Source of the DNA: Pseudomonadota bacterium
GTDB lineage: Bacteria > Pseudomonadota > Alphaproteobacteria > Acetobacterales > Acetobacteraceae
DNA: 64,000 nt
Direction: 5' to 3'
Assembly: GCA_021801255.1 (NCBI GenBank)
Contig: JAJYYH010000063.1
Location: 62,001-126,000 of the forward strand
Below, piece after piece: positions 29,336 through 44,009 of this stretch. Both the position numbers and the translations under genes were made by a program. The notes below the pieces were generated by a model that was given only the letters and a program-made list of their open reading frames with translations, did not search any database and had not been told where the DNA came from. Positions within the stretch are counted from its first letter, which is position 1. Every line of letters starts with the position of its first letter.

Positions 29336-30568
29336 CTATGCCGCGAGCGCCAGCCGCGCTGCGCCAACCGCCGCCTCGCTCGCGCGCGCCGGCCGGAACG
29401 GCACGCCGAGCAGCCGGGCACGGATGGCCGTGAAGGTCGGGTTGGCAGCACCCCCGCCGACCGCGCGGATCGAGGCAAGCGCCGAGGCCCCGAGTTCGCC
29501 CAGGCGCTGGTAGCCGAGCGCCTCGACCCGCGCCAGACCTTCGAGCATGCCATGCAGAAAACGCGCGTCCTCCGCCGGGCGCGGGGTCAGCCGCGGCGCC
29601 AGGGCGGGATCGCTGATGGGAAACCGCTCGCCCGGACGGAGCAGCGGATAATAGTCGAGCCCGCTCGGCACGCTGGGGTCGATCGCCGCCGAGAGCGCGG
29701 CCAGCCGCGCCGGGTCGAAATAGGCCGCGAGCACCGCGCCGCCGGCATTCGAGGCCCCGCCAGCCAGCCACATCTCGCCCAGGCGGTGGCTGTAGATGCC
29801 ATAATGCGGGGCAAAAACAGGGCGGGACGAGAGCAGCTTGATCGTCAGGGTCGAGCCGAGCGAGGTCACGGCGTCCCCGGCCGCGGCGGCTCCCGTGGCG
29901 AGGAAGGCCGCGCAGCCATCGGTGGTGCCGGCGATCACCAGGGCGGCGGGGTCCAGACCGAGCGCCCGGCCCTCGGGCCCGACCGGCCCGAGCGCGCTGC
30001 CCGGCGGCACGACGCGCGGCAGATCGTCGGGACCAAGACCCAGCGCCGCAAACCAATCCGGCCAGCGCCGCGCCACTGGATCATAGCCGGTCTTGAGCGC
30101 GTTGTTCTCATCGGTCACGTCGAACGCGCCACGCAACCGCCCGGCGATCCAGTCGGCCTCATGCAGCACCCGCGCCACCCCCGGCCGCGCGCGCAACGCC
30201 AGCAGCTTGGCCAGCGGCGAGGCCGCGCCATGCGCCGCACTCTCCCCCGGCGCGAGAGCGGCGATGCGGGCAACCAGGGCCGGCGCGGCGGGGTCGTTGT
30301 AGAGTTCGGCCGGCGCGCGCGGCGACCCACCCGCATCGATCGCGACCAGCGTGCCCGACGTGCCATCGACGGCGACGCCGCGGATGGCCCCGAGCGCGCC
30401 GAGTTTGCCGAGCGTCGTCTGCACCGCGCCCCATAACGCCGCCGCATCGCGCCGCGCCACGCCGTCAAGCGGCGTGGTGGCAAAAACCACAGGCTCGCCC
30501 GCCGCATCGATCACCGCCGCGCGCACGCCGGACGTGCCGAGATCGATGCCGAGCGCGATTCCGCTCAT
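29336..30568 (-). CDS. FGGY-family kinase, D-ribulokinase/xylulokinase-like (SePSK type)
   Basis: A 410-residue sugar kinase. The N-terminal phosphate loop is LGIDLGTSGVRAAVID, then IRGVAVDGTSGTLVAID (catalytic aspartate, about residue 70) and LVIAGTTDGCAAFLATGAAA, GDAVTSLGSTLTIKLLSS, YSHRLGEMWLAGGASNAGGA. This pattern matches, from memory, the compact cyanobacterial/plant SePSK/XK-1 group with D-ribulokinase activity, not classical XylB. It is the last gene of the 13.4 kb polyol operon and starts with an ATGA overlap with the aldolase gene. Likely product: D-ribulose 5-phosphate or a related ketose phosphate; substrate unproven. Confidence 0.85.
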   Translation of the reverse strand: MSGIALGIDLGTSGVRAAVIDAAGEPVVFATTPLDGVARRDAAALWGAVQTTLGKLGALGAIRGVAVDGTSGTLVAIDAGGSPRAPAELYNDPAAPALVARIAALAPGESAAHGAASPLAKLLALRARPGVARVLHEADWIAGRLRGAFDVTDENNALKTGYDPVARRWPDWFAALGLGPDDLPRVVPPGSALGPVGPEGRALGLDPAALVIAGTTDGCAAFLATGAAAAGDAVTSLGSTLTIKLLSSRPVFAPHYGIYSHRLGEMWLAGGASNAGGAVLAAYFDPARLAALSAAIDPSVPSGLDYYPLLRPGERFPISDPALAPRLTPRPAEDARFLHGMLEGLARVEALGYQRLGELGASALASIRAVGGGAANPTFTAIRARLLGVPFRPARASEAAVGAARLALAA

Positions 30569-31590
30569 GGCCGCGCCGCCAGGGTACGGCGGTAGTGCTC
30601 GGCCTCCCAGTTCATCAGCGCCTGCTCCTCGGCGGCACGCAAGGGGCGAAGCGGCAGCGCCGGGTCGAGCCGCGCCGTGACATCGGCCAGGCAGCGCGCG
30701 AGCGCGGCCACCCCCGGCGCCGCGTCGCGGCGCAGCAATACCCCCTGGCCCGGCACGACCAGCATCGGCGGCAGCGGCCCCTCCCGCGGCAGCGGCGCAT
30801 CGAGCGCTGCCACGACGATGCCGGGGCCAAGAAAAATCACGTGATCGGGATAGAACGAGCCCAGCCGCGCCACCGCGAGCGCCAAGGGATCGGTCGCGAT
30901 GGCGTGGATATCGGGCGCGGCCAGACCATAGGCGCTGCCGGCGGCGAGCCGGGCCAGGGCCGCGGTGTCGGCGGGCGGGGCCAGGCGCCGAACCAGCCGC
31001 AGCCGCGCCGCAACCGTTGCGACCAGAGCGGCGGCGGCCGCGGTATCCTCGGCCCCAACGACGAGGCCGTGATTGCCGAGCACCAGGATGTTGGTCGCGG
31101 GCCGCAGGCGCGCCATGATCGCGCGCGTGAGCGGCGGGCCGGGGCGGATATAGGGGATGAATGCCCAATCGAGCCCGGCGAGCGGGCCGGCCAGCGCCTT
31201 CTCGGCATCCCCCCGCGCCGCCCAGGCGATGGTCTCGATGCAATGCACATGGACCACGACGCGATGCGGCAAGGCGGCGTGCAGCGTCGTTTCGATCGAT
31301 GGTCGCAAGCCGCCCGGATTGTCCGCATCGACGACGAAATCGCGCGCCGTCTCGGCGCGGGGATCGCCAGCCGCAAGGGCTGCCAGCAGTGGCGCCAGCC
31401 GCACCGGCACCATGATCGGGCGGCAAGCGGCATCGCGGAGCCAGGTGCCAGAGGCCTTCACCCACAAAATGCCCGCGCGCTTGAGCGAGGTATTGCCGCC
31501 TGCGCCCTGCACCAGCGCCGGATCGGCGCCGATGCGCGCGGAATAGAGCGCAAGGGCTCGGAATTCCGGATCCTCGGTGATGCCGCTCAT
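30565..31590 (-). CDS. Class II aldolase/adducin-family protein, long form
   Basis: A 341-residue zinc-type class II aldolase domain. GAGGNTSLKRAGILWVKASG (about residues 27-46), zinc ligands in RVVVHVHCIET (HxH, about residues 127-129) and LVLGNHGLVVGAED (about residue 190) are intact. It corresponds to the N-terminal aldolase half of bifunctional aldolase/short-chain dehydrogenases such as RhaD/YuxG types, but has no dehydrogenase domain. It overlaps glpD by ATGA. It may cleave a ketose 1-phosphate to DHAP and an aldehyde; which ketose is unknown. It is the second class II aldolase in this operon. Confidence 0.85.
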   Translation of the reverse strand: MSGITEDPEFRALALYSARIGADPALVQGAGGNTSLKRAGILWVKASGTWLRDAACRPIMVPVRLAPLLAALAAGDPRAETARDFVVDADNPGGLRPSIETTLHAALPHRVVVHVHCIETIAWAARGDAEKALAGPLAGLDWAFIPYIRPGPPLTRAIMARLRPATNILVLGNHGLVVGAEDTAAAAALVATVAARLRLVRRLAPPADTAALARLAAGSAYGLAAPDIHAIATDPLALAVARLGSFYPDHVIFLGPGIVVAALDAPLPREGPLPPMLVVPGQGVLLRRDAAPGVAALARCLADVTARLDPALPLRPLRAAEEQALMNWEAEHYRRTLAARP

Positions 31591-33080
31591 GCCGCCTGCG
31601 CCATCCACGCCGCGAAACTGTCGATCTCCGCCGCGCTCATGTGGAGATGATGCTTGGTGCGCCGCAAGAGCACGTCCTCGGGGCGCCGCGCCCACTCGCA
31701 ACGGATGAGAAAATCCGCCTCGCGGGCATAGAGCTGGCCGCCGAAATGTTGCCCCAAATCGGCGAGATCGCGCGCCCCATCGAGCAAGGCCTCGGCGCGC
31801 GTGCCATAGCTCCGCGCGTAATGATGGGCGAGGGGCGCGGGAAGAAAACCAAACCGCGCGGTGAAGGACGCGAAATAGCGCGCGAAATCGGCATCCGGCA
31901 TATCGCCGCCCGGCAAGGGTGCCTTCTCCGTCCAGGCCCCGCCGAGTTCAGGCGCGAACGGCGCGAGCTTGGCCAGCGCGTGTTCGGCGAGCTTGCGATA
32001 GGTCGTCAGTTTGCCACCAAAAACCGATAAAAGCGGCGGGCCGTCGGCGGGCTGGTCAATATCGAACACATAATCGCGCGTCACCGCTGAGGGGTTTGCG
32101 GCCTTGTCGTCATAGAGTGGGCGCACGCCGGAAAAACTGTAGCGGATATCGCCCAGCGCGAGCTGATGGCGGGTGTAGCGATTGACCGCGCGCAGAAGAT
32201 AGGTCTGCTCGGATGGCTCGATCGCGACCGCCTCGGCCGCGCCTTCGTAGGGAATATCGGTGGTGCCGATCAGACAAAGATCGCCTTGATAAGGATTGAC
32301 GAAAATCACCCTCTTGTCATCGTTTTGCAGCAGATACGCCTGTTGCCCGGACCAGAATTTCGGCACCACGATATGGCTGCCTTTGACCAGACGCACGCGG
32401 CGCGGCGTGTTCGCGCCGATGACGCCGAACAACACGCGCTCGACCCACGGGCCCGCAGCATTGACCAGAATACGCGCCCGCACCAGGCGCTCGCTCCCAT
32501 CGGGCGAGCGCAGCGTCACCCGCCACAGCCCGGCCACACGCCGGGCGGCAACCGCCTCGGTGCGTGGGCAGATCTCGGCCCCGCGGCGCGCCGCGTCGAG
32601 CGCGTTGAGCACAACCAGCCGGGCATCCTCGACCCAGCAATCGGAATATTCGAAAGCGGTGGTGAATTCCCCGCGAATCGCCTGGCCCTCGGGATCGCGG
32701 CGCAGATCGATGCGCCGCGTCGGCGGCAAGCGCTGGCGCCCGCCGAGATGATCATAGAGAAAAAGCCCAAGCCGGATCATCCAGGCCGGGCGCTGCTCGC
32801 GGCTATGGGGCAATACGAAACGCATCGGCCAGACGATATGCGGGGCCAAAGCGAGCAACACCTCGCGCTCAATCAGCGCCTCGCGCACCAGGCGGAATTC
32901 ATAATATTCGAGATAGCGCAAACCACCATGAATGAGCTTGCCCGAGCGCGAGGACGTACCCTCCCCGAGATCGCCTTTTTCGCAGAGCAGAACCTTCAAT
33001 CCCCGCCCCACCGCATCGCGCGCTATGCCAACGCCGTTGATGCCGCCGCCAATAACGACCAGATCGAACGGCACGCTCAT
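31587..33080 (-). CDS. glpD: FAD-dependent glycerol-3-phosphate / polyol-phosphate dehydrogenase (GlpD/EryB-like)
   Basis: A 497-residue membrane-associated flavoprotein. The FAD motif VVIGGGINGVGIARDAVGRG is followed by GTSSRSGKLIHGGLRYLEYY, the GlpD signature. The C-terminal cap domain (ending HLHMSAAEIDSFAAWMAQAA) is present. GlpD oxidises glycerol 3-phosphate to DHAP and passes electrons to quinone. The related EryB does the same to erythritol phosphate. Because it sits among an EryA-like kinase and aldolases, oxidation of a longer polyol phosphate is as likely as glycerol phosphate. It overlaps both neighbours by 4 bp. Confidence 0.88.
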   Translation of the reverse strand: MSVPFDLVVIGGGINGVGIARDAVGRGLKVLLCEKGDLGEGTSSRSGKLIHGGLRYLEYYEFRLVREALIEREVLLALAPHIVWPMRFVLPHSREQRPAWMIRLGLFLYDHLGGRQRLPPTRRIDLRRDPEGQAIRGEFTTAFEYSDCWVEDARLVVLNALDAARRGAEICPRTEAVAARRVAGLWRVTLRSPDGSERLVRARILVNAAGPWVERVLFGVIGANTPRRVRLVKGSHIVVPKFWSGQQAYLLQNDDKRVIFVNPYQGDLCLIGTTDIPYEGAAEAVAIEPSEQTYLLRAVNRYTRHQLALGDIRYSFSGVRPLYDDKAANPSAVTRDYVFDIDQPADGPPLLSVFGGKLTTYRKLAEHALAKLAPFAPELGGAWTEKAPLPGGDMPDADFARYFASFTARFGFLPAPLAHHYARSYGTRAEALLDGARDLADLGQHFGGQLYAREADFLIRCEWARRPEDVLLRRTKHHLHMSAAEIDSFAAWMAQAA

Positions 33081-33739
33081 GCCGCGCTCGCGGGTTCCTG
33101 CACGCCGTAATTCTCGAATTTCCGGGCGGTCTCGGCGATTTCTTCATCCGAGAGCAGCACCGGCCCACCGATCAGCAAACTGTGATAATATTGCCGCGCG
33201 ATGGTTTCAAGCTCGACCGCCCGCCACATCGCCTTGGTGAGCGATTCGCCGAGCGCGATCATGCCGTGATTGGCAAGCAAACAGGCAAACCGCCCCTCGA
33301 GCGCCTGCAACGCATGTTCGGAAAGCGCCTTGGTGCCGAACGTCGCATACGGCGCGCAGCGCACATTGGTGCCACCGAAAGCCGCGATCATGTAGTGGCA
33401 GGCGGGGATTTCCCGCCGCGTGATGGCGATCGTGGTGCAGAACGTGGGATGGCTATGCACCACCGCATGCACTTCCGGGCGTGCCTTCATGATATCGAGG
33501 TGAAAGCGCCATTCACTGGAGGGCTGCAAGGGCCCCGACCAGGCGCCATACTCACCCGCGATCGGCATCACCGCGATGTCTTCCGGCCGCATCGTGTCAT
33601 AGGCGACCGCGGAAGGCGAAATCAGCATATCCGTGCCATGCCGCACGCTGATATTGCCCGAAGTGCCTTGATTGATGCCAAGCGCGTTCATCTGCCGGCA
33701 GGCGGTCACGATGGCGTGGCGCAGGTTTTTTTCGGCCAT
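33077..33739 (-). CDS. Class II aldolase, L-fuculose-phosphate aldolase-like (FucA type)
   Basis: A 220-residue zinc aldolase of the FucA/AraD fold. LGINQGTSGNISVRHG (phosphate-binding loop, about residues 18-33), SSEWRFHLDI (catalytic glutamate, about residue 73), VVHSHPTFCTTIA (zinc HxH, about residues 92-94) and LLANHGMIALG (third zinc histidine, about residue 155) are all intact, so it should be active. I chose ATG 33739 (AEKNLRHAI). Overlaps glpD by ATGA; 13 bp from the hydroxyacid dehydrogenase gene. It would give DHAP plus an aldehyde from a ketose 1-phosphate. Confidence 0.88.
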   Translation of the reverse strand: MAEKNLRHAIVTACRQMNALGINQGTSGNISVRHGTDMLISPSAVAYDTMRPEDIAVMPIAGEYGAWSGPLQPSSEWRFHLDIMKARPEVHAVVHSHPTFCTTIAITRREIPACHYMIAAFGGTNVRCAPYATFGTKALSEHALQALEGRFACLLANHGMIALGESLTKAMWRAVELETIARQYYHSLLIGGPVLLSDEEIAETARKFENYGVQEPASAA

Positions 33740-33752
33740 GACAAGCATTCCT

Positions 33753-34790
33753 CTAGCAGGGGTGAAGTGGCGGCAAGCCCGCGAAATAGCGTCTGACATC
33801 CTCGGCGATCTCCCGCGCCGCGATGGTGATGGTCTTGCGCGAGGCCCCGGCGATATGTGGCGTCAATGTCACGTTCGGCAATTTCAGAAGTGGCCAGTCG
33901 GGAGGTGCCGGCTCGATCGCGAAGGTCTCCAGCATCGCGCCGCCGAGATGGCCGGAGGCGAGTGCCGTGTATAGCGCCTCGTAGTCAACAAGCGGTCCGC
34001 GCGCGGTGTTGACGAGAAGCGCCCCCGGCTTCATCGCCGCCAATTCCCTGGCGCCGATGAAACCAGTGGTCTCCGGCGTCACCCGCGCATGGAGCGTGAC
34101 GATATCGGCCTCATGCAATACCTGCGCGAGATCGGTCTGCACGACCGCCGCAAGGCGATCGGCCGCCGAGATTTGCACATAGGGATCGGCGACCAGAATG
34201 CGGCAGCCAAAGGGCTTGAGCAGCGCCACCACCCGCGTGCCGATCGCGCCATAGCCCACCACACCCACCGTCATTTCCGATAATTCGCGCCCGGTTCGAT
34301 CGGCGCGGTAGAGATCGCCGCGCCATTCCCCGGCGCGCAGCGCCTCGTGTCCCGCGCGGATCAGCCGCGTCTCGGCGAGGATCGCGCCGATGGTGAACTC
34401 GGCGACCGCGCTGGCATTGCGCCCCGGCGTATTGACGACGCGCAAGCCCCGCGCGCGCGCCGCCTTCATATCGATATTCACCGGTCCGCCGCGCGAGACC
34501 GCGATCATGCGCAATTCCGGCAAGCCCGCGAGCATTGCCTCGGAAACCGGCGCGAGATGCGTCACAAGCACCTCGGCCGCGCCGATGAAATCGGCGATAA
34601 TTTTGGGATCTCCCTGATACTCTTTGAGCCCGTCGAGACCCGAGCGGGCATAGCCGTGCTCCATCGGCGCATCCGGCCAAGGCAATGTCATGCTCCGCGA
34701 GGCGATATCAGCCGGGCATGCCGCGGCGAGGGCGGCGGCGAATTCTTCCGGCAGCATGAAGTGATCGCCGACGATCGCAATCTCACGCAT
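33753..34790 (-). CDS. D-isomer-specific 2-hydroxyacid dehydrogenase
   Basis: A 345-residue NAD(P)-dependent dehydrogenase. The Rossmann loop is VGVVGYGAIGTRVV (about residue 165). The active-site arginine is in VNTARGPLVDYEAL, the glutamate in LETFAIEPAP and the histidine in LTPHIAGASRKT. Closest general types are phosphoglycerate or glyoxylate/hydroxypyruvate reductases. Starts inside the end of the kinase gene (8 bp overlap). In this operon it might reduce or oxidise a product of the aldehyde released by the aldolase, such as glycolate or glycerate; that is inference. Confidence 0.86.
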   Translation of the reverse strand: MREIAIVGDHFMLPEEFAAALAAACPADIASRSMTLPWPDAPMEHGYARSGLDGLKEYQGDPKIIADFIGAAEVLVTHLAPVSEAMLAGLPELRMIAVSRGGPVNIDMKAARARGLRVVNTPGRNASAVAEFTIGAILAETRLIRAGHEALRAGEWRGDLYRADRTGRELSEMTVGVVGYGAIGTRVVALLKPFGCRILVADPYVQISAADRLAAVVQTDLAQVLHEADIVTLHARVTPETTGFIGARELAAMKPGALLVNTARGPLVDYEALYTALASGHLGGAMLETFAIEPAPPDWPLLKLPNVTLTPHIAGASRKTITIAAREIAEDVRRYFAGLPPLHPC

Positions 34791-36342
34791 TGTGCAGCCC
34801 CTCCCTCGCGATCGCGAGACCACGCCAAGTGCTCTGCAACGCCTGATAGGATTGGCGGTAGAGCGGATAGAGTTCACGATAGCGCGCGGCAAGCGCCCGA
34901 TCGGGCTGCTCCACGCGACCAAGAAGCGGCGCGACCCAACGTGCGGCGCAGTCCTGCATGTTGGAGAAAATGCCCGTCGCGACCGCGGCAATCATTGCCG
35001 CGCCCGCCGCACCCGCTTCCGCCTGCGCCACCGTGCCGACCGGACGATCGAGACAGGCGGCCAGAATGCTGCGCATCAAGGGTGATTTCGCCGCCCCGCC
35101 GGTCGCTCGCAGCGCCGCCGGCGCCCCCCCCATCGCCGCGAAACAATCCTGCGCCGCGAAGCCGAGGCTCTCAAATACCGCGCGCGCAAGCTCGGCCAGC
35201 CCCGTGGTCTGATCGATGCCGATCCAGGCGGCGCGTGCCGCGGCATCGGTGAACGGGCCGCGCTCGCCGGCGGTGGAGATGAAGGGGTGAAACAGCAAGG
35301 CGCCGGGCCGCGCGCGCGCCGCCACCGTACCCAGCGCCGCGAGAATATCCCCCTCCCCCGGCACCCCGGCAAGTGTCGCCGCCTCTTGCACCAGCCCGAC
35401 CAACCAGTCGATATTGAGCGTCGCCGCCATGTTGGTCTGGGCCTGCATGACCGCGCCGGGCAGCGGAAAAACCATGCAATAGCCGGTCATCTCAGCGCTT
35501 GGCCGCACATCTTCTTCGCGCAGCGCAAGTCGCAGATGCATGCCCGTGCTGCCGAGGATCGACACCCCCGACTGACCAGCGCCGTAGATCCCACCACCAA
35601 GCGCGGTGCACACGACATCGACATAGCCGAGCACCACCGGCAATCCTTCCGCCAGACCGATCGCCCGTGCCGCCGCCGCGCGCAAAGGATGCCACTGCCG
35701 CGTGCCATCGACGATCGGTGGCAGCAAACCACGCTGATCGGCAAGCCCAAGCGCGTCGAGCACGTCCGCGGCATAGCCACGTCGCCGCCAGTCGCCAAAG
35801 GTAAAGCAGGCTTCGGAAGGATCGCTACAGCGTATGCCAGTCAGGTTGAAATAGAGCCAGTCCTTGCAATGCAAGGCCGTCGCGGCGCGGCGCAGCGTCT
35901 CGGGCTGATGTTCCTTGAGCCACAGGAGCTGGCTTGATTGTTGGCAGGCGTTGAGACCCGAGCCGGTGAAGGCGAAGGCCCGCCGTGCCGCCTCGCCCGC
36001 GCGCAGCTTTGCCACCAGTTCGCCGGCGCGGCCATCGAGCCAGAGCCAGGCAGGGCCAACGGGCTCGCCCGCCGCGTCGATCAGCCAGGTGCCGTCACCC
36101 TGCCCGGTCACGGCAAGTGCCGCAACCTCGCGCCCCGGCAAGCGCGCGCGCAATTCGGCCAACGCCGCGATCGCGTCGCGCCAGCTTCGCGCCATGTCCT
36201 GCTCGACACCACCGCCCGCGACGTGTTCGATGCGGTTAGGCCGCGCGGCGCTCGCGAGTGTCCGCCCCGCCGCGTCGAACGCTACCGCCTTGACCACCGA
36301 CGTTCCTGAATCAAGCGCGAAAATCACTGCCTCGCTCATCAT
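34783..36342 (-). CDS. FGGY-family polyol kinase, erythritol kinase (EryA)-like
   Basis: A 519-residue FGGY kinase, the same length as EryA of Brucella and rhizobia as I recall it. Stretches typical of that group are AVTGQGDGTWLIDAAGEPVG, ALHCKDWLYFNLTG, SEACFTFGDW, VVLGYVDVVCTALGGG, SILGSTGMHLRLAL and NMAATLNIDWLVGLV. Other FGGY kinases do not share these, so a tetritol or pentitol substrate is favoured over glycerol or xylulose. The start is ATGATG: the first ATG (36342) overlaps the ABC gene stop, and the second (36339) has better spacing from ggggaggg. It phosphorylates the imported polyol. Confidence 0.85.
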   Translation of the reverse strand: MMSEAVIFALDSGTSVVKAVAFDAAGRTLASAARPNRIEHVAGGGVEQDMARSWRDAIAALAELRARLPGREVAALAVTGQGDGTWLIDAAGEPVGPAWLWLDGRAGELVAKLRAGEAARRAFAFTGSGLNACQQSSQLLWLKEHQPETLRRAATALHCKDWLYFNLTGIRCSDPSEACFTFGDWRRRGYAADVLDALGLADQRGLLPPIVDGTRQWHPLRAAAARAIGLAEGLPVVLGYVDVVCTALGGGIYGAGQSGVSILGSTGMHLRLALREEDVRPSAEMTGYCMVFPLPGAVMQAQTNMAATLNIDWLVGLVQEAATLAGVPGEGDILAALGTVAARARPGALLFHPFISTAGERGPFTDAAARAAWIGIDQTTGLAELARAVFESLGFAAQDCFAAMGGAPAALRATGGAAKSPLMRSILAACLDRPVGTVAQAEAGAAGAAMIAAVATGIFSNMQDCAARWVAPLLGRVEQPDRALAARYRELYPLYRQSYQALQSTWRGLAIAREGLHNA

Positions 36343-37412
36343 CCCTCCCCGCCGTGACGAAGCGCCGCCCCAGTCGCGGCATCGAAAAAATGCGCATCCT
36401 CCGGGGCAAAGCCAAAGGCGATTTTTTCTTCTACGCGCACGGCGACCTTGTGATGCGAGACGGCGACCAGAAGCTGATCGGCAAACGCGATCACGACATG
36501 CGCCTGATCGCCGAGCCATTGGTTGGAGACGATGGTCCCGGCAAGCGCGCCCTCGCCGAGCCGCAAGCGATGCGGCCGGATGCCGAGCATGACGCGCCGC
36601 CCCGGCGGCAATGCCAGACCGGGGAACGCCACCGCCGCCGCGCCCCCGAGTGCGACGCCATCCCCGCACCGCTCGGCCGTCAACACGTTCATCGGCGGCT
36701 CGCCGATGAAGGTCGCGACAAAGAGATTTTCCGGGTGATCGCGCAATGCGTCAGGCGAGCCGAATTGTTGCAGAACGCCACCCTCCATCACCGCGATGCG
36801 GTCGGCCATGGCATTGGCCTCGGTCTGGTCATGGGTGACCAGCACCGCGGTGAGATGGCGCTCCTTGATGAGAGCCTTGACGCGCCCGCGCAGAATGGCG
36901 CGAAGCTGCGGCTCAAGCTGCCCCATCGGCTCATCGAGGAGATAGAGATCAGCCTCGCGCGCGAGCGCCCGCGCAAGGCTCGCGCGCTGCTGCTGCCCGC
37001 CGGAAAGACGGCTCGGGCGGCGCTCAAGAATATCGCCGATTTCGAGCAGTTCGGCGATTTCGCGCACCTTGCGATCGACCTCATCGCGCCCATTTCGGCG
37101 CGCCAGGCCGAAGCCGATATTTTCGGCGACCGTCAGCGGTGGATAGAGCGCGTAACCTTCGAACGCCATGGCAACGCCGCGCGAAGCCGGCTCAAGCGTA
37201 TCGATACGCCGCCCGGCGAGCGTGATCGCGCCTTCGGTCACACTCTCGAAACCGGCAACCATACGAAGGGTAGAGGTCTTGCCGCAGCCGGAGGAACCGA
37301 GCAAGGCAACGATTTCGCCTGCCTCCATGGCAAACGACATGTCTTGCACGGCGCGCACCGCGATCGCGCCACGACCATAGACTTTGCTGACGTGATCAAG
37401 AACGAGGCTCAT
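36339..37412 (-). CDS. CUT1 ABC transporter ATPase, subunit B (MsmK/GlpT-like)
   Basis: A 357-residue sugar ABC ATPase with a C-terminal regulatory/OB domain. Walker A GSSGCGKTST, signature LSGGQQQRASLARALA, Walker B LYLLDEPMGQLEP and H-loop LVTHDQTEANAM are canonical. The Q-loop is unusual: AFEGYALYP, with Glu replacing the expected Gln. It is paired with a second, different ATPase gene immediately upstream (ATGA overlap), so the transporter probably uses a heterodimer, as in rhizobial GlpST glycerol importers. Confidence 0.88.
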   Translation of the reverse strand: MSLVLDHVSKVYGRGAIAVRAVQDMSFAMEAGEIVALLGSSGCGKTSTLRMVAGFESVTEGAITLAGRRIDTLEPASRGVAMAFEGYALYPPLTVAENIGFGLARRNGRDEVDRKVREIAELLEIGDILERRPSRLSGGQQQRASLARALAREADLYLLDEPMGQLEPQLRAILRGRVKALIKERHLTAVLVTHDQTEANAMADRIAVMEGGVLQQFGSPDALRDHPENLFVATFIGEPPMNVLTAERCGDGVALGGAAAVAFPGLALPPGRRVMLGIRPHRLRLGEGALAGTIVSNQWLGDQAHVVIAFADQLLVAVSHHKVAVRVEEKIAFGFAPEDAHFFDAATGAALRHGGEG

Positions 37413-38509
37413 GCCGCTTTTCCGGCCATGACCCGGCGGGCGGGAATACGCGCCCCGGATGCGGCATCGAACAGCAGCGCCGCGGCGGCGTCCGCCGCGA
37501 CAGCGACCTGCGCGCCCGGCGGCGGGGCCGCGCCGAGCAGGCTCGCGACGATCTCCGTTCCATCGCCGGCGCGAAGCAGAACGACCAGACGCTCGTGCAA
37601 GGGCGTGGTCGCGATCACCTCCAGGCGCGCGGCATCCGGCCCCGCCGCCGCGAGCGACAGGGTCTCCGGCCGCAGGCCCAGCAGGCACTCTTGCCCCGCC
37701 GCCTCGGCGCTGGCATCGAGCACGAGACGAAACCCCGCGGCCTCGGCCCGTAAGCCGGCGGGATCGGCCACCGGCCGGCACGCCAAAAGGTTCACCGGCG
37801 GGTCGCCGAAAAGCCGCGCCACCGCCGCCGTCGCCGGCCGGTCATAGACCGTCTCGGAAGCGTCGCATTGCTCGATGCGGCCCGCGCGCAGCACCGCGAC
37901 GCGATCGCCGAGCGCCATTGCCTCACGATAATCCTGCGTCACATAGAGCGTCGCCGCCTGGCTTTCGCGCAAAAGCCGGGGCAGCTCGAGGCGCATCTCG
38001 TAGCGCAGCTTGGCATCGACATTGCGCAGCGGGTCATCGAGCAGCAGCACGCGCGGGCGCCCGACCAGGGCGCGCGCGAGCGCTGTGCGCTGCTTCTGGC
38101 CATTGGAGAGCGCGCGCGGCGGATGGCTCAGCACGTGGCCGATGCGCAAGAGCTTGGCAATTTCCGCGACGCGCGCGGCGATCTCGTCGGCCTGCAGACC
38201 GCGCGCGACCAGCGGGCTCGCGATGTTGTCGCGCGCCGACATATGGGGATAAAGCGCGAAATTCTGAAAGGCCATGCCAATATTGCGCGCCTCCGGCCCA
38301 CGCGCCGAGACATCCTGGCCGTCGATCACAACCTGGCCGAGAGCCCCCGGCTCGAGCCCGGCGATGGCGCGCAGCAGCACCGTCTTGCCGGCACCCGACG
38401 GTCCGAACAGCACCAGCGTCTCACCCGGCGCGACCGCCAGGTCAACGCCGCGCAGTACCTCATGGCGGCCGAACCGCGCGTGGATCGCTGCGACTTTGAG
38501 CCCGGTCAT
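37409..38509 (-). CDS. CUT1 ABC transporter ATPase, subunit A (GlpS-like, degenerate catalytic site)
   Basis: A 366-residue sugar ABC ATPase with intact Walker A (GPSGAGKT) and Q-loop (AFQNFALYP). The signature is LSNGQKQR in place of LSGGQ, Walker B is VLLLDDPL with Asp at the catalytic Glu position, and the H-loop is YVTQDYREAM with Gln for His. These changes suggest weak or no hydrolysis at its own Walker site. The C-terminal domain is retained. It overlaps both neighbours by 4 bp and most likely works with subunit B in one asymmetric importer. Confidence 0.87.
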   Translation of the reverse strand: MTGLKVAAIHARFGRHEVLRGVDLAVAPGETLVLFGPSGAGKTVLLRAIAGLEPGALGQVVIDGQDVSARGPEARNIGMAFQNFALYPHMSARDNIASPLVARGLQADEIAARVAEIAKLLRIGHVLSHPPRALSNGQKQRTALARALVGRPRVLLLDDPLRNVDAKLRYEMRLELPRLLRESQAATLYVTQDYREAMALGDRVAVLRAGRIEQCDASETVYDRPATAAVARLFGDPPVNLLACRPVADPAGLRAEAAGFRLVLDASAEAAGQECLLGLRPETLSLAAAGPDAARLEVIATTPLHERLVVLLRAGDGTEIVASLLGAAPPPGAQVAVAADAAAALLFDAASGARIPARRVMAGKAA

Positions 38510-39351
38510 CCCTTGACCGCTCCCAGCGACAAGCCCTCGACGAGCCAGCGTTGGGCGTAAAGTGCGAGTGCCAGCGTGGGTAAAATCGAAAGCACGATGG
38601 CCGCGGCGATCTGGCCGTACTGGATACCCGAGGCGGTGACAAAGGCCAGCGCGCCCACCGTCACCGGCTGCTTGTCGGCGGAAGCCAAGATCAGCGCGAA
38701 GACAAAATTATTCCAGGCGAAAATGAACGAGAGCAGACCCGCCGCCGCGATCCCCGGTCCAGCGAGCGGGATGGCGATGCGGGTGAAAGCGCGCCACCAG
38801 GAATGGCCGTCGATCCGGTACGCGTATTCGATGTCCGGGCTCGCATCCTCGAAATAGCCGCGCACGATCCAGAGAATGAGCGGCAGGCAGATGAGCTGAT
38901 AGATCCAGATGAGGCCAATATAGGTGTCGTTCAGGCCGAGATCCTGGAAATAGAGCGAAAGCGGCAGGAGAACGAGGAGCGGCGGGGCGAAGCGGAATGA
39001 GAGCATGGTGAAGGCGATGTCCTCGCCGAGCCGAAAACGGAAGCGCGCGAAGGCGTAGGCCGCCGGCACGCCGAGCACGAGGGCGAGCAGCACCGAGCAG
39101 GTCGAGAGCAAAATCGAATTCCACAAATTATGCAGGAACGTGATATCAAGAATGCCAGATGCCGTCTGCAAATGGCCGGAAATCAGCGCGGTATAGTTGG
39201 CAAGCGTCGGGGCAAAGACGAGGCTCGGGGGCAGGCGCAGGATCTCCTCGTTGGTCTGGAACGACATCACGACGATCCAGAAAATCGGAAAGAGGAAGAA
39301 CAGCAGAACCAAGGTGAGTGCCGCGGCCCGCAGCAACTTATGCAGCGCCAT
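38506..39351 (-). CDS. CUT1 sugar/polyol ABC transporter permease (MalG-like)
   Basis: A 281-residue permease with six predicted membrane helices. The N-terminal span LTLVLLFFLFPIFWIVVMSF is typical of MalG-type subunits. The coupling (EAA) loop reads EYAYRIDGHSWWRAFTRIAI (about residues 170-190), which docks to the ATPases. C-terminus LVEGLSLGAVKG fits the family. Overlaps the downstream ATPase gene by 4 bp and the upstream permease by 14 bp. The substrate is presumably the polyol handled by the rest of the operon. Confidence 0.9.
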   Translation of the reverse strand: MALHKLLRAAALTLVLLFFLFPIFWIVVMSFQTNEEILRLPPSLVFAPTLANYTALISGHLQTASGILDITFLHNLWNSILLSTCSVLLALVLGVPAAYAFARFRFRLGEDIAFTMLSFRFAPPLLVLLPLSLYFQDLGLNDTYIGLIWIYQLICLPLILWIVRGYFEDASPDIEYAYRIDGHSWWRAFTRIAIPLAGPGIAAAGLLSFIFAWNNFVFALILASADKQPVTVGALAFVTASGIQYGQIAAAIVLSILPTLALALYAQRWLVEGLSLGAVKG

Positions 39352-40267
39352 GGGTACGCTCCCGCAATTTCAGCCACTGCTTGATGAAGACGTTGGACAA
39401 CGCATAGGTCAACGCCCAGAGCACGATCATCAGCGCCGCCGATGTGCCGACATTGGTGTATTGGAAGAAGTCGAGATAGGCACGCACCTGGAACAACATC
39501 AACGAATCGCCCGGTCCACCCTGGGTCATCGCATAAACGATATCGAATTGCTGCATCGAGTCGAGCATGCGGAAGAGCGTCGCGGTAACGATATAAGGTG
39601 CTAGCATCGGCAGGGTGATCCGGAAAAACACAAAATGCCCGGCCACGCCATCGAGCCGCGCCGCCTCGAAGGGCTGCTGCGGCAGGCTGCGCAGGCCGGC
39701 CAGCAACAACACCATCATGAACGGCGTATAGACCCAGATATCGACGAGCACGACAGTAAACATCGCGCTCGACGGCGCCGAGGCCCAGCGGAAGTCGTGG
39801 ACGCCGAAGAGCGCGACGAGCCAGCTCAGGACACCGAAATTTGGGTTGGTCATGAGCTTCCACATCAGCGAGGCGATCGCCGGCGCGGTCATCAGCGGCA
39901 GCAGCAGCGCAACCGAGACGATATTGTTGAAGCGTGTCCGCTCGCGCAGCAACAAGGCGATGCCGAGGCCGAGCAGCAACTCCAGCCCGACGGTGGAAGC
40001 CGCATAGACCGCCGAGACCCGCACCGTGGCCCAGAAATCGGGGTCGGTCAGCATGTCGAGATACTGGCCAAACCAGACAAATTCCCGGTTTAACGGCATC
40101 GCGAGATTGTAGCGCTGCAGGCTGTACCAGGCGGCGGTGAAGAAGGGCACCAGAATGCCGATACAGACAATCAGCGCTGGCAGGCTCAGTAGATAGGGCA
40201 GCAGCCGGGGCAGCAGCGGCCTCGCGGGCGCCTTGGCGGGGGTCGGGATAATAACGGTCGTTGACAT
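39338..40267 (-). CDS. CUT1 sugar/polyol ABC transporter permease (MalF-like)
   Basis: A 309-residue permease with six predicted helices, the first at about residues 25-50 (LLSLPALIVCIGILVPFFTA). The EAA loop is FEAARLDGVAGHFVFFRITL (about residues 205-225). It forms the channel with the MalG-like subunit. ATG 40267 lies 45 bp after the binding-protein stop. Confidence 0.9.
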   Translation of the reverse strand: MSTTVIIPTPAKAPARPLLPRLLPYLLSLPALIVCIGILVPFFTAAWYSLQRYNLAMPLNREFVWFGQYLDMLTDPDFWATVRVSAVYAASTVGLELLLGLGIALLLRERTRFNNIVSVALLLPLMTAPAIASLMWKLMTNPNFGVLSWLVALFGVHDFRWASAPSSAMFTVVLVDIWVYTPFMMVLLLAGLRSLPQQPFEAARLDGVAGHFVFFRITLPMLAPYIVTATLFRMLDSMQQFDIVYAMTQGGPGDSLMLFQVRAYLDFFQYTNVGTSAALMIVLWALTYALSNVFIKQWLKLRERTHGAA

Positions 40268-40312: not shown

Positions 40313-41752
40313 TCAGCCGATGCCGGCCTGATGCAATTGCCGATTGACGCTGTCGGCAAGTTTGTCAAGGCCCTCATCGACGCTCACTTCACGCGCCACC
40401 ATGCGCTGGAGCGAGGCCGCCCATTCGGTGGTGAGATTGAAGAACAGCGGCTGCGGCGTGAAGTAGATTTTCGCGTCCGGCGCGGTTTTTTCGTACTGGT
40501 TGAGATAGCCAGGATAGGATTTGGCGATCCGCTCCTTGAACTCGGCATCCTGCCAGACGCTGTTGCGCACCGGGTTGACGACATCGCTCTTGCGCGCCCC
40601 GTAGAACAGATGATCGGTTCCCGATGCCCACTGGATGAAAGTCCATCCGGCATCTTTCTGCCTGGAGAAGTTCGACATCGCGAGCGACCAGATCCAGACA
40701 TTCGAGGTCGGGCCCTTGGCCGCCGGATTGGCGGCAAACGGCGCGTAGGCGAGATGGCCGCGCTCGCGGTTGTCACCGCCGTTCATGAAATAGCCGAGGA
40801 TGTCGGCGTCGTAGATCATGCCGGAGGCGCCGGCGCCAAGATCGGTGCCAACCTGATACCAGGTATAGGTTGCCCAGTTCTTCGGCCCCGATTCCTGGAT
40901 CATCTGCACCCAGAGCTTGTGGAACGCCTTCGACTCCGGCGTGTTCATCGCCGCCCGGAGCCGGCCATTCGCCATGGTGAAGTCGCGCTGGCCATAGTTC
41001 GAATAGGCCGAGAGAAATCCCGGATGGATCGTCGCCCAGGAGCGGCTGCCGCGCACGCCGATGCCGTAGGGACCACCGGCATCCTTGGTGATTTTTGCCG
41101 CAACCGCCATCAGCTCTTCCATGTTCCGCGGCGGCGAGAGCTTGAGCTTGTCGAAGATCGTTTGATTATAGGAGAGATTGTTCAGCTCGAACCCCCACGG
41201 CACCGCCCATTGATGGGCACCCGGGCCGCCCAATTCAGCGCCGGGCTTGCCCGACCAGGCGGTCGAGGCGCGCAGATTGGGCAGAATGTCGTCCCAGTTA
41301 TAGGTCGCCGCGGTTTTCGTCGGATCCTTGAGGTATTCGTTGAAATCGACGAGCCAGCCGGCCGGGCCATATTGCCAGGTCTGATAGGCGCCGGTCATGA
41401 ACACATCGTATTGCGTCGCGTGCGAGGACAGCGCCGCAGTTACTTTATCGAAATAAACATCCTCGGGGAAAATGTCATAGGTCACCTCCATCCCCGTGAG
41501 CGTCTCGAAATTCGCGAGATCGGCGATCAAGGCGTCGGCATAGGGGTGCTTGTTGAGCAGCACCTTGATCTGGGTGCCCTGGTGCTTTTTCCAGTCGAAA
41601 TCGGCGGCGAGCGCCCGGGTCGCTGCCGCGTTCAGCAGCGTCTCGGCGCTGCCCAGCGCCAGGCCGAGGCCGGCCAGACGGCGGGCGAGTTCGCGGCGAC
41701 CTATCCGGCCTGCGAGAAAGGCGGTTGCGAGATCTTGTGCTTTTTCGTGCAT
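40313..41752 (-). CDS. Extracellular solute-binding protein, family 1 (polyol/sugar)
   Basis: A 479-residue periplasmic binding protein of cluster D type. The N-terminus is unusual: about 30 residues precede the hydrophobic stretch, with the twin-arginine-like GRRELARRLAGLGLALG (about residues 18-34) and possible cleavage after AAATRALAA, so Tat export is plausible. The mature part shows IKVLLNKHPYADALIADLAN and FETLTGMEVTYDIFPEDVYF. The 5' end overlaps the 3' end of the SorC regulator gene by 52 bp in another frame; no good internal start exists. Binds the substrate of the transporter; ligand unknown. Confidence 0.87.
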   Translation of the reverse strand: MHEKAQDLATAFLAGRIGRRELARRLAGLGLALGSAETLLNAAATRALAADFDWKKHQGTQIKVLLNKHPYADALIADLANFETLTGMEVTYDIFPEDVYFDKVTAALSSHATQYDVFMTGAYQTWQYGPAGWLVDFNEYLKDPTKTAATYNWDDILPNLRASTAWSGKPGAELGGPGAHQWAVPWGFELNNLSYNQTIFDKLKLSPPRNMEELMAVAAKITKDAGGPYGIGVRGSRSWATIHPGFLSAYSNYGQRDFTMANGRLRAAMNTPESKAFHKLWVQMIQESGPKNWATYTWYQVGTDLGAGASGMIYDADILGYFMNGGDNRERGHLAYAPFAANPAAKGPTSNVWIWSLAMSNFSRQKDAGWTFIQWASGTDHLFYGARKSDVVNPVRNSVWQDAEFKERIAKSYPGYLNQYEKTAPDAKIYFTPQPLFFNLTTEWAASLQRMVAREVSVDEGLDKLADSVNRQLHQAGIG

Positions 41753-42753
41753 GTTCCACTCCCTGTGGTTGGACGACGCGGGTCGGGATGGTCGAGGAGC
41801 CGCCGCGCCGTCGGCTCATCGGTGATCAGGCCGCTCAGAATGCGCGACGCGAGCACGGCGCGGAGCGCCGCGACCTTGGCGAGCCCGCCCGCGACGGCGA
41901 CGACCTCCCGCCCCGCCATCGCCTCGAGCGGCAGCGCGATGACGCGATCGTGCAGATCGGTTTTTACCCGGCGCCCGGCGGCGTCGAGATAGCACCCCAG
42001 CACTTCGCCCACCGCCCCTGCCCCGCGCAGCGTCTCCGCCTCTTCCTCGGACACCACCCCGGCTTGCGGCAGAAACGTCTCGGCGCCGCTGACCTCGCCG
42101 ACGCCGACGAGAAACAGCGTCGCCTCGCGGGCCATCGCCATCGCCTCCGCCACCCCACGCTGTGCCAGCAGCACCGCGCGATCTTCGGCCGTGTTGGCGA
42201 AGAACGGCACCGGCAAAAGATAGGCCTCGGCGCCGGTTTTCTCGGCCAGGCGATGGATCATGTCGAAGGGATTGGCGCTCATCTGGCGCGGCACGCCGCC
42301 GAGCAGAGAAACGAAGCGCAGATCGGGACGCGGGAAACGCGGCAGGTGATCGACGGCGGCGGCGAGGGTGCGGCCATGGCCGACGCCGATCACACGATGG
42401 CGGTTGTTTTCCAGCTCGTTGAGCAGCATCCCCGCGGCCGCCAGGCCAAGCGCGCGGAGCGGCGGATCGCTCGGCCCCAGCGTCGGGACGACGCGGCAAA
42501 AACGGAGATCGAATTCGCGCATCAAATGCCGCTCAAGCGGCATGCAGCCAGCGATCGGCCCCTCGACGAACACCCGCACCGCGCCGGCGCGGCTGGCGCG
42601 CGCCACCAGGCGATGCGCCTTGGCGGGCGCGACCCCCAAGGCGGCGGCGACTTGCGACTGGGTCAGGCCGCCGGCGTAGTAGAGCCAGGCCGCGCGGGTC
42701 GCGAGCGCGTCTTCCGGGTCGATCTCCGGGGTCATTGGGCTCGGCGTTTCCAT
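41701..42753 (-). CDS. SorC/DeoR-type sugar-binding transcriptional regulator (EryD/LsrR-like)
   Basis: A 350-residue regulator with an N-terminal helix-turn-helix (LYYAGGLTQSQVAAALGVAP, about residues 22-41, then AKAHRLVARASRAG) and a C-terminal sugar-phosphate-binding domain (VIGVGHGRTLAAAVDHLP, VSLLGGVPRQMSANPFDMIH). SorC members such as EryD and LsrR control polyol and AI-2 operons and respond to phosphorylated sugars. ATG 42753 is chosen; ATG 42735 is an alternative. It is the first gene of the 13.4 kb operon and probably represses it through the inverted repeat just upstream. Confidence 0.88.
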   Translation of the reverse strand: METPSPMTPEIDPEDALATRAAWLYYAGGLTQSQVAAALGVAPAKAHRLVARASRAGAVRVFVEGPIAGCMPLERHLMREFDLRFCRVVPTLGPSDPPLRALGLAAAGMLLNELENNRHRVIGVGHGRTLAAAVDHLPRFPRPDLRFVSLLGGVPRQMSANPFDMIHRLAEKTGAEAYLLPVPFFANTAEDRAVLLAQRGVAEAMAMAREATLFLVGVGEVSGAETFLPQAGVVSEEEAETLRGAGAVGEVLGCYLDAAGRRVKTDLHDRVIALPLEAMAGREVVAVAGGLAKVAALRAVLASRILSGLITDEPTARRLLDHPDPRRPTTGSGTCTKKHKISQPPFSQAG

Positions 42754-42770
42754 TCGCGTTTCCACCCGAT

Positions 42771-42803
42771 TGCAAAATTTTTTGTTATGTGAAAAAATTT
42801 GCA
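42771..42803 (-). promoter_or_regulatory. AT-rich inverted repeat, probable SorC operator/promoter
   Basis: The arms are tgcaaaattttttg (42771-42784) and tgaaaaaatttgca (42790-42803), nearly perfect inverted copies around ttatg, 18-50 bp upstream of the SorC start. The AT-rich patch stands out sharply in GC-rich surroundings. On the minus strand it overlaps plausible -35 ttgggt and -10 ataaca sequences, as expected for a repressor operator. It also lies upstream of rfbB and could affect that promoter. Confidence 0.55.
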
Positions 42804-42956
42804 TACCCAAGGCCGTCCGTCAAGCGCAAAATGCGTCCCCCTGAAAATGTGCCCCCGCCCGAAAATACGCCCCTTCACGCCGGCGGCGGGGCTGCGATGG
42901 ACCAGCGCCGGCAGAGCGGCTATTGCGGGCGGGTTTCGCCACCTCATGGGGGAAAA

Positions 42957-44009
42957 ATGCGGATATTGCTCACGGGCGGCTGCGGCTTCATCGGCTCGGC
43001 GGTGGTGCGCCACAGTCTCGCCGCGACCGGGCATGAGATCGTCAATGTCGATAAAATGACCTATGCCGCCTCGGAGGACGCGCTGGAGGCGGCGCGCGGC
43101 GATCCCCGCCATCGCCTGATCCGCGCCGATATCGCCGAACCCGGCGCGATGCGCGAGATTTTCGCCACCTACCGGCCCGATGCCGTCATGCATCTCGCCG
43201 CCGAGAGCCATGTCGATCGCTCGATCGACGGACCGGCCGAGTTCATCCGCACCAACATCACCGGCAGTTTTTCGCTCCTGGAGGCGGCGCGCGCGTATTG
43301 GGCGGGGCTCGGGGCCGCGGCGCGGGCGCGGTTTCGCTTTCATCACGTTTCGACCGACGAGGTATTCGGCGCCCTCGGCCCCACCGATCCGCCCTTCACC
43401 GAGACCACGCCCTACGATCCGCGCAGCCCCTATTCGGCGAGCAAGGCCGCCTCCGACCACCTCGTGCGCGCCTGGTTCCACACCTATGGTCTGCCGACGA
43501 TCGTCAGCAATACCACCAACAATTACGGCCCCTGGCAATTTCCCGAAAAACTCATCCCGCTGGTCACGCTGAACGCGCTCGAGGGCAAGCCGTTGCCGGT
43601 TTACGGCGACGGCTCGAACCAGCGCGACTGGCTTTTCGTCGCGGACCACGCCGAGGCGTTGCTGGCGGTGCTGGAGCGCGGCGAACCGGGTGCGACCTAC
43701 GCCATCGGCGCGCGCCAGCCGCGCTCCAACCTCGAGGTGGTGCGTGAAATTTGCGCAACCCTCGACGATTTGCGCCCCGATCCCGCCGGTCCGCGCGAGC
43801 GGCTGATCACCTTCGTTGCCGATCGGCCGGGGCATGATTTCCGCTACGAGATCGATCCCTCGCGAACCGCTGCGGCGCTGGGCTGGCAGGCCAAACACGA
43901 TTTCGCCGCCGGGCTCCGGCGCACCGTCGCCTGGTATCTCGATCATGCGCCGTGGTGGCAGGCCTTGCGTGCCGAGCGCTACGGCGGCGAGCGGCTGGGC
44001 GCGGCTTAG
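42957..44009 (+). CDS. rfbB: dTDP-glucose 4,6-dehydratase
   Basis: A 350-residue short-chain dehydrogenase-type enzyme converting dTDP-glucose to dTDP-4-keto-6-deoxyglucose, the second step of dTDP-rhamnose synthesis. The NAD loop is [15 protein letters not shown]. The catalytic residues are visible in [11 protein letters not shown] (Thr, Asp, Glu), and [15 protein letters not shown] gives the Y-x-x-x-K pair. [16 protein letters not shown] and [18 protein letters not shown] are family motifs. I chose ATG 42957 (preceded by ggggga); a longer open frame up to 42735 runs through the AT-rich operator and is not supported. First of rfbB-A-C-D. Confidence 0.94.

What the first reader, a model, noticed from the sequence alone, without database searches (positions are those of the whole stretch)
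36339..38509. Asymmetric sugar-importer ATPase pair with one degenerate catalytic site
CUT1 importers usually use one ATPase as a homodimer. Here two unequal genes are coupled. Subunit A has LSNGQ, Asp at the Walker B catalytic position and Gln at the H-loop. Subunit B has canonical LSGGQ/DE/H but Glu in the Q-loop. The changes are complementary, as in ABC exporters with one non-hydrolysing site, which is unusual for sugar importers.
Basis: seen in the sequence. Interest (0 to 1): 0.5.

Follow-up and report, generated by a model that had tools for sequence, protein, structure and literature searches.

The report
Lopsided motor of a polyol importer
This is the known bacterial uptake pump for small sugar alcohols such as erythritol, and its two ATP-burning subunits are unequal in a fixed, conserved way that suggests one of its two ATP sites does most of the work, a trait well known in export pumps that we did not find described for this family of import pumps.

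Summary
Observation confirmed. Two overlapping minus-strand genes (A 37409-38509, B 36339-37412) encode MalK-like ATPases. A has LSNGQ, Asp159 in Walker B and Gln192 in the H-loop. B has canonical LSGGQ, DE and H, but Glu85 in the Q-loop.

The changes are fixed in every orthologue row counted (105 A, 102 B besides the window), including 28 of each found without motif seeds. All 116 MalK-like background ATPases have Q, E and H. Synonymous codons vary at each site, so selection holds the residues.

By operon and homology this is MptABCDE, the polyol importer (erythritol, adonitol, L-arabitol in S. meliloti), not GlpST, which has its own, different degeneracy.

The catalytic losses lie in one composite site (A's), but A's signature change and B's Q-loop change lie in the other. 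That is not the exporter pattern; GlpST comes closer to it.

Best reading: an obligate A-B heterodimer with one hydrolysing and one ATP-holding site. This is inferred; no biochemistry of this pair was found in the searches made. New variant of a known kind.

The parts
37409..38509 (-). ATPase subunit A (MptD-like by gene order; MalK/UgpC-type NBD with C-terminal TOBE)
   Evidence: AlphaFold2 pLDDT 91.1, Foldseek hits to MalK-family chains
36339..37412 (-). ATPase subunit B (MptE-like by gene order; MalK/UgpC-type NBD with OB_MalK and TOBE), overlaps A by 4 nt
   Evidence: AlphaFold2 pLDDT 91.4, Foldseek hits to MalK-family chains
38102..38104 (-). A Asn136, third position of the ABC signature (LSNGQ)
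   Evidence: 28/28 seed-free and 77/77 seeded rows; codons AAC 89, AAT 16
38033..38035 (-). A Asp159, Walker B position of the catalytic Glu
   Evidence: 28/28 and 77/77; codons GAT 75, GAC 30
37934..37936 (-). A Gln192, H-loop position of the switch His
   Evidence: 28/28 and 77/77; codons CAG 99, CAA 6
37158..37160 (-). B Glu85, Q-loop position
   Evidence: 28/28 and 74/74; codons GAG 60, GAA 42
36912..36914 (-). B Glu167, D-loop (GQLE; background has Asp here)
   Evidence: 28/28 and 74/74; codons GAG 72, GAA 30; background Asp 116/116
38506..39351 (-). permease, MalG-like (MptC-like), with a non-canonical EAA coupling loop (EYAYRIDGH)
   Evidence: loop counts
39338..40267 (-). permease, UgpA/MalF-like (MptB-like), canonical EAA loop (FEAARLDGV)
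40313..41752 (-). periplasmic substrate-binding protein (SBP_bac_1; MptA-like)
41701..42810 (-). sugar-binding transcriptional regulator (EryD/LsrR-like); start codon uncertain
   Evidence: 53% to the EryD-type regulator of L140
34783..36342 (-). FGGY kinase (EryA-like)
   Evidence: 54% to the S. meliloti locus, 49% to the EryA-type kinase of L140
33753..34991 (-). 2-hydroxyacid dehydrogenase family (RbtA by gene position, inferred); start codon uncertain
33077..33799 (-). class II aldolase (FucA-like)
31587..33080 (-). GlpD-family dehydrogenase, nearer the EryB-type protein of L140 (62%) than the GlpD of L139 (53%)
30565..31701 (-). class II aldolase-like protein; start codon uncertain
29336..30577 (-). 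second FGGY kinase; start codon uncertain

Best explanation
The genes are mptD/mptE-type ATPases of an MptABCDE polyol importer (erythritol, ribitol, L-arabitol class), encoded near the head of a polyol catabolic operon. A and B most likely work only as an A-B heterodimer. Site 1 (A's Walker A/B, Q- and H-loops with B's signature, and probably B's D-loop) binds ATP but hydrolyses it slowly or not at all, and serves as a regulatory pivot. Site 2 (B's Walker A, Glu161 and His194 with A's LSNGQ) is the hydrolysing site. B's Glu in the Q-loop and the odd EAA loop of the MalG-like permease probably retune coupling between the motor and one permease. Shown: sequences, conservation, gene pairing, operon, predicted fold. 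Inferred: heterodimerisation, which site hydrolyses, one ATP per transport cycle, and a possible energy saving when importing small polyols.
For: Fixed substitutions in every orthologue row counted: 105 A and 102 B, including 28 of each found without motif seeds. Each site uses two synonymous codons; for A D159, A Q192, B E85 and B E167 the usual residue is one nucleotide change away, yet it is not seen in these rows. ATP-binding residues of site 1 are kept: A G39, G41, K42 and Q82 in 105/105, B signature Ser and following fixed Gly in 102/102. A is not decaying: over 101 loci the mean pairwise identity is 57% for A and 61% for B. A and B lie together in 101 of 105 loci with A; in L046, L047 and L052 the DNA held ends within or just after A, and L086 has only a short B-like frame near its contig end. 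Of 55 full-length loci, 54 or 55 hold homologues of regulator, binding protein, both permeases, A, B, first kinase, 2-hydroxyacid dehydrogenase and GlpD homologue; the first aldolase is in 45, the second in 49, the second kinase in 50. S. meliloti MptABCDE takes up erythritol, adonitol and L-arabitol, and Bradyrhizobium BTAi1, whose locus L062 carries this pair, is listed there with MptA (PMC3599248, passages). In ABCC1 the Asp in place of the Walker B Glu marks the poorly hydrolysing site, and putting Glu there raises hydrolysis but lowers transport (PMC7756269, passages).
Against: No biochemistry. Asp may support slow hydrolysis, and ABCC1 keeps transport with Gln at the H-loop of its hydrolysing site, so site 1 may not be inert. 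Site 2 is not fully canonical either (LSNGQ, Glu in the Q-loop), so which site hydrolyses is an inference. A B-B homodimer is not excluded. The substrate in this organism is inferred from homology: no match to the S. meliloti EryC-type protein was found in the window or the genome, as in the published group 3 loci, so erythritol itself may not be the main substrate. The seed-free rows were still chosen by overall similarity to A.
Confidence: 0.68

Rival explanations
1. Both sites hydrolyse: Asp159/Gln192 in A are compensated by other residues, and the sequence asymmetry reflects specialisation of each ATPase for a different permease (docking), not loss of hydrolysis at one site.
For: The permeases are asymmetric too: the MalG-like one has Tyr (80) or His (2) at the second Ala of the EAA loop in 82 of 82 Mpt permeases, background Ala or Gly in 49 of 49. 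Some changes (B Q-loop, signature third position) are in contact or coupling regions rather than catalytic. Gln at the H-loop supports transport in ABCC1.
Against: The two classical catalytic residues are lost together in one subunit and in no row of the other; a Walker B Asp marks the degenerate site of ABCC1.
Confidence: 0.2
2. A is a mainly regulatory or structural subunit, and B-B homodimers do the transport; A-B exists only as an inhibited or sensing form.
For: B keeps the Walker B Glu and the H-loop His; B scores above the Pfam cut-off for OB_MalK, A just below it.
Against: B's own D-loop and Q-loop are unusual; A's ATP-binding motifs are conserved and A evolves nearly as slowly as B; coupled genes with a 4-nt overlap.
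Confidence: 0.08
3. Random drift or a pseudogene-like state of A.
For: None found beyond the departure from consensus itself.
Against: Full-length open frame, 66 of 359 A columns invariant over 106 rows, synonymous codon variation at fixed residues.
Confidence: 0.01

Closest known systems
MptABCDE, multiple polyol transporter of Sinorhizobium meliloti (erythritol, adonitol, L-arabitol)
   Same: Same gene content and order in the S. meliloti Ak57 locus L144: regulator, binding protein, two permeases, two ATPases, kinase, 2-hydroxyacid dehydrogenase, aldolase, GlpD-family dehydrogenase, aldolase, kinase. Its A-B pair is 55-57% identical and carries the same motifs.
   Different: No match to L144's eryC-, eryR-, tpiB- or rpiB-like genes in the window, and none to eryC in the genome; this resembles the group 3 arrangement described for Acidiphilium and Bradyrhizobium (PMC3599248, passages). 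The ATPase asymmetry was not seen described in the listings and passages searched.
GlpSTPQUV, glycerol ABC importer of Rhizobium leguminosarum and relatives
   Same: Importer for a small polyol with two adjacent unequal MalK-like ATPases; GlpS also lacks the H-loop His (Thr 17, Ser 5 of 22).
   Different: Different operon, with a DUF2160 protein and glpK (L141). GlpS keeps Walker B Glu and LSGGQ but has a non-Gly residue at the fourth Walker A position in 19 of 22; GlpT has Asp for the key signature Gly in 23 of 23 but keeps Gln, Glu and His. All these losses fall in one composite site. Counts come from Alphaproteobacteria at large; of R. leguminosarum itself only GlpS (L139) was read, as no GlpT frame of 200 aa or more was found there.
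MalK/UgpC ATPases of CUT1 importers
   Same: Nearest families and fold.
   Different: Usually one ATPase as homodimer (recalled), with Q, E and H in 116 of 116 background rows.
Heterodimeric exporters with a degenerate site (TM287/288, TAP1/2, ABCC1)
   Same: Walker B Asp in one NBD and consensus catalytic residues in the other (ABCC1: PMC7756269, passages; the Asp and H-loop Gln of TM287 and TAP1 are recalled).
   Different: There the opposing signature of the same site is degenerate too (recalled for TAP2); here it is canonical, and the odd signature faces the intact site. Importer with separate TMD and NBD chains.
RbsA and NupO, fused-NBD importers with one degenerate site
   Same: Bacterial importers with unequal ATP sites (PMC11466899, passages).
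   Different: Type II topology there, both NBDs on one polypeptide, and no Walker A Lys in the second half; here Walker A is intact in both subunits.

Membership tests
MptABCDE polyol importer | Five-gene transporter (binding protein, two permeases, two ATPases) next to eryA/eryB/eryD-type genes | tested here: met
   literature passages
[quoted passage not shown]
   growth or uptake assay needed
CUT1 (MalK-type) importer | MalK/UgpC-like ATPase with C-terminal OB/TOBE domain, MalF/MalG-like permeases, SBP_bac_1 binding protein | tested here: met
   A scores 25.0 bits for OB_MalK against a cut-off of 27, but TOBE_2 is above cut-off in both
CUT1 (MalK-type) importer | Single ATPase gene acting as homodimer | tested here: not met
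   two adjacent unequal ATPase genes; the oligomeric state itself is not testable here
GlpST glycerol importer | glpU (DUF2160), glpK and glpR-glpD neighbourhood | tested here: not met
   compare
GlpST glycerol importer | GlpS with altered Walker A and H-loop, GlpT with ruined signature (as measured here) | tested here: not met
   A and B have intact Walker A, B an intact signature
Degenerate-site heterodimeric ABC transporter (exporter type) | One NBD lacks the catalytic Glu | tested here: met
   A Asp159 in 105/105 rows
Degenerate-site heterodimeric ABC transporter (exporter type) | Signature of the opposite NBD, facing the same site, is degenerate | tested here: not met
   B signature third position Gly 92, Ala 9, Ser 1 of 102; fourth position Gly 102/102
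Degenerate-site heterodimeric ABC transporter (exporter type) | Only one site hydrolyses ATP at a significant rate | not testable with these tools
   ATPase assay needed

The most novel reading that the evidence does not exclude
Importers of very small polyols built on MalK-like ATPases (Mpt for tetritols and pentitols, Glp for glycerol, a dihydroxyacetone-kinase-linked pair) form an ancient branch in which the MalK homodimer was replaced by an unequal ATPase pair, with A and GlpS descending from one subunit that had already lost its switch histidine. Mpt then took a route that I do not know from exporters: catalytic losses in one site, signature and Q-loop changes in the other, and an altered coupling loop on one permease. 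The result would be an importer spending one ATP per small polyol instead of two.
Probability: 0.2. Interest if true: 0.68.

Novelty: new variant of a known kind. Interest (0 to 1): 0.5.

Why it matters
MalFGK2, the textbook importer, has two equal ATP sites, and how many ATPs a cycle needs is a long-standing question (recalled). A close relative in which nature has fixed one catalytically weakened site gives a natural test: if Mpt and Glp import with one hydrolysis per cycle, two hydrolyses are not needed for a type I importer. It also matters for annotation: both subunits look like generic UgpC-like ATPases (NCBIfam best hit PRK11650, below its cut-off), so the weakened subunit is not flagged.

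Tried and rejected

Drift of A: rejected.

Seed bias: one search used short peptide patterns, one of which includes the A H-loop and one the Q-loop, so its 80 loci cannot by themselves prove that Gln192 is fixed. I therefore counted loci from other searches apart (with 26 and 45, 32, 56): 28 A and 28 B, same result. These were still chosen by overall similarity to A.

Rarity: A was found in 6 of 385 genomes of the class (own included, E 1e-88) and 20 of 151 of one family. In one search (phylum, 12 of 398 at E 1e-100) only 4 genomes, own included, scored beyond 1e-160; the other 8 matched at about 1e-101 to 1e-104. Of those 8 I printed four loci; the three whose ATPase frame was shown far enough have a canonical signature and Walker B, and all 8 were counted in the background.

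Ancestry of the pairs: not resolved. With motif columns left out, A, B, S and T each form one group in an 88-row tree (SH-aLRT 99, 100, 86, 100). In that tree A and S are not a group by themselves; they lie with four other rows in an unsupported group (25). In an 82-row tree from which I left out six rows (three distant or long U rows, the two L185 rows, a duplicate of the GlpT reference), A+S is a group with support 96. AU tests did not reject B+T (p 0.434), A+B (0.425) or S+T (0.122). So one ancient duplication and separate ones both remain open.

Plasmid hits H98, H101, H100, H146, H33 and H43 proved to be single-ATPase or other systems. H197 and H200 had no ABC transporter beside glpD.

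Structure prediction of single chains shows intact MalK-like folds but says nothing about hydrolysis; no complex was modelled.

Paper searches aimed at a degenerate site in a CUT1 importer, or at Mpt or Glp ATPases. None of the listings or passages that I saw described one. The library is open-access PMC only; the 2012 primary papers on mpt and glp did not appear in these listings and were not read. Papers seen as found passages: PMC3599248, PMC10433430, PMC7912956, PMC7756269, PMC11466899, PMC12136057; all others only as search listings.

Rows dropped before counts: nine duplicate or own-genome rows, and rows failing a score or identity filter (77 A and 74 B rows remain from 80 seeded loci). 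still held the L141 GlpS and GlpT twice; the Glp counts given here are the recount.
Full report
What is there. Two genes on the minus strand overlap by four bases: A (37409-38509, 366 aa) and B (36339-37412, 357 aa). Both are MalK/UgpC-type ATPases by NCBIfam and Pfam, by PDB sequence search and by predicted fold: pLDDT 91.1 and 91.4, best Foldseek hits MalK-family chains. They share 32% identity with each other.

Conservation. I collected orthologous pairs in two ways. The 80 loci were found with short peptide seeds, one of which contains the A H-loop, so I count them apart. In 77 seeded and 28 seed-free A rows, Asn136, Asp159 and Gln192 are invariant, and so is the normal Q-loop Gln82. In 74 seeded and 28 seed-free B rows, Glu85 (Q-loop), Glu161 (Walker B), His194 and Glu167 (D-loop) are invariant. 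The background is 118 MalK/UgpC-like ATPases, mostly from the same class; two turned out to be mis-sorted, and the remaining 116 all have Gln, Glu, His and Asp at the Q-loop, Walker B, H-loop and D-loop positions. Codons at the fixed sites vary synonymously (for example Asp159 GAT 75, GAC 30; Glu85 GAG 60, GAA 42), although the usual residue is one base away at A Asp159, A Gln192, B Glu85 and B Glu167. A is nearly as constrained as B (mean pairwise identity 57% and 61% over 101 loci). This looks held by selection, not drift.

Where the changes sit. One composite ATP site is built from Walker A and B, A-, Q- and H-loops of one subunit and the signature of the other (PMC7756269, passages). Site 1, with A's catalytic residues, has Asp159 and Gln192 but faces B's canonical signature (third position Gly 92, Ala 9, Ser 1 of 102). 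Site 2, with B's catalytic residues, has Glu161 and His194 but carries B's Glu85 Q-loop and faces A's LSNGQ. B's D-loop ([GS]QLE) is a further fixed change; in an inward-facing TM287/288 structure the TM288 D-loop touches the nucleotide of the degenerate site, and by analogy B's D-loop would lie at site 1 (inference).

Coupling side. The MalG-like permease (38506-39351) has an odd EAA loop. The second Ala is Tyr in 80 and His in 2 of 82 Mpt permeases, against Ala or Gly in 49 of 49 background permeases. The Asp of the DG pair is lost in 64 of 82 (Ala 60) but kept in the window itself; in the background it is Asp 42 and Glu 5 of 49. The other permease is canonical. The asymmetry therefore reaches the motor-permease interface. 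Which ATPase docks on which permease is unknown.

What system it is. The operon is regulator, binding protein, two permeases, A, B, FGGY kinase, 2-hydroxyacid dehydrogenase, class II aldolase, GlpD-family dehydrogenase, aldolase, FGGY kinase. Its GlpD homologue is nearer the EryB-type protein of a R. leguminosarum locus (L140, 62%; named Ery by me from its gene order) than GlpD (L139, 53%). Of 55 full-length related loci (54 of them seeded), 54 or 55 hold homologues of regulator, transporter genes, first kinase, 2-hydroxyacid dehydrogenase and GlpD homologue; the aldolases are in 45 and 49 and the second kinase in 50. This is the S. meliloti-type polyol locus: the transporter mptABCDE takes up erythritol, adonitol and L-arabitol, and loci of Bradyrhizobium and Acidiphilium have an MptA-type transporter without eryC, eryR and tpiB (PMC3599248, passages). 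The S. meliloti Ak57 locus carries the same pair and continues into eryC-, eryR-, tpiB- and rpiB-like genes (names by position). None of these four matches the window. EryC has no match in the whole genome, and the TpiB query hits only a 39% homologue on another contig. The name MptDE for the two ATPases follows gene order and is inferred.

Comparison with GlpST. The glycerol operon (L141: glpD, two ATPases, two permeases, DUF2160, binding protein, glpK) has a different pair. GlpS (22 distinct rows) keeps LSGGQ and Walker B Glu but has Thr or Ser for the H-loop His in 22 of 22 and a non-Gly residue at the fourth Walker A position in 19 of 22. GlpT (23) has Asp for the key signature Gly in 23 of 23 and keeps Gln, Glu and His. 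Those losses all fall in one composite site, the exporter-like arrangement. A third kind of pair (L266, L269, L271, L273, L275) keeps canonical catalytic residues in both subunits. It is followed by a full-length dihydroxyacetone-kinase-like gene in L266 and L269 and by a partial match (31-34% over about 190-210 aa) in the other three. So having two ATPases does not by itself mean a degenerate site.

Mechanism. Most likely an obligate A-B heterodimer, ATP held at site 1, hydrolysis at site 2. Shown: sequence, conservation, pairing in 101 of 105 loci, operon and predicted fold. Inferred: heterodimerisation, site roles, ATP per cycle. Precedent: in ABCC1, putting Glu at the degenerate Walker B raises hydrolysis but lowers transport, and the review suggests that TAP needs its non-hydrolysing site for full activity. 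Against full inactivity of site 1: Gln at the H-loop of the ABCC1 second site supports transport.

Ancestry. Each subunit is one group. The deeper order is not resolved: A with GlpS is a supported group in one tree only, and alternatives were not rejected.

Novelty. Degenerate sites are known in exporters and in fused importer ATPases such as RbsA and NupO (PMC11466899, passages). In ten searches of the open-access library I saw no description of one in a CUT1 importer, nor any remark on Mpt or Glp ATPase motifs (listings and passages only). The primary mpt and glp papers of 2012 were not read. I call it a new variant of a known kind.

Noticed in passing
L141 (11534-13702), L139, L164-L185: GlpS/GlpT glycerol-importer ATPases: GlpS has H-loop Thr/Ser (22/22) and altered Walker A (19/22), GlpT a ruined signature (Gly to Asp 23/23), all in one composite ATP site; the cleaner exporter-like case.
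   Followed up: partly
L266, L269, L271, L273, L275 (about 3.7-7.7 kb): Another MalK-type importer with two adjacent ATPases, both with canonical Q, E and H, followed by a dihydroxyacetone-kinase-like gene (full match in two loci, partial 31-34% match in three).
   Followed up: partly
L270 4574-7822: A further adjacent ATPase pair: the first has signature SVNE, the second Ser at the fourth Walker A position; an amidohydrolase gene lies downstream. A possible further degenerate-site importer.
   Followed up: no
window 38506-39351: The MalG-like permease of Mpt systems has an unusual EAA coupling loop (Tyr at the second Ala in 80 of 82, His in 2), while its partner permease is canonical.
   Followed up: partly
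L139 12576-13622: In R. leguminosarum Ta9k the stretch between glpS and the first permease holds no frame of 200 aa or more where GlpT should lie; the gene may be broken in this record.
   Followed up: no
window 42735-45105 (+): Next to the regulator, on the other strand, two frames that read like dTDP-sugar genes (dehydratase and nucleotidyltransferase, by eye only).
   Followed up: no
L144 (CP090106.1): A 3.7 Mb S. meliloti record is labelled plasmid pSymB; its size suggests the chromosome (label probably wrong, by recall of replicon sizes).
   Followed up: no
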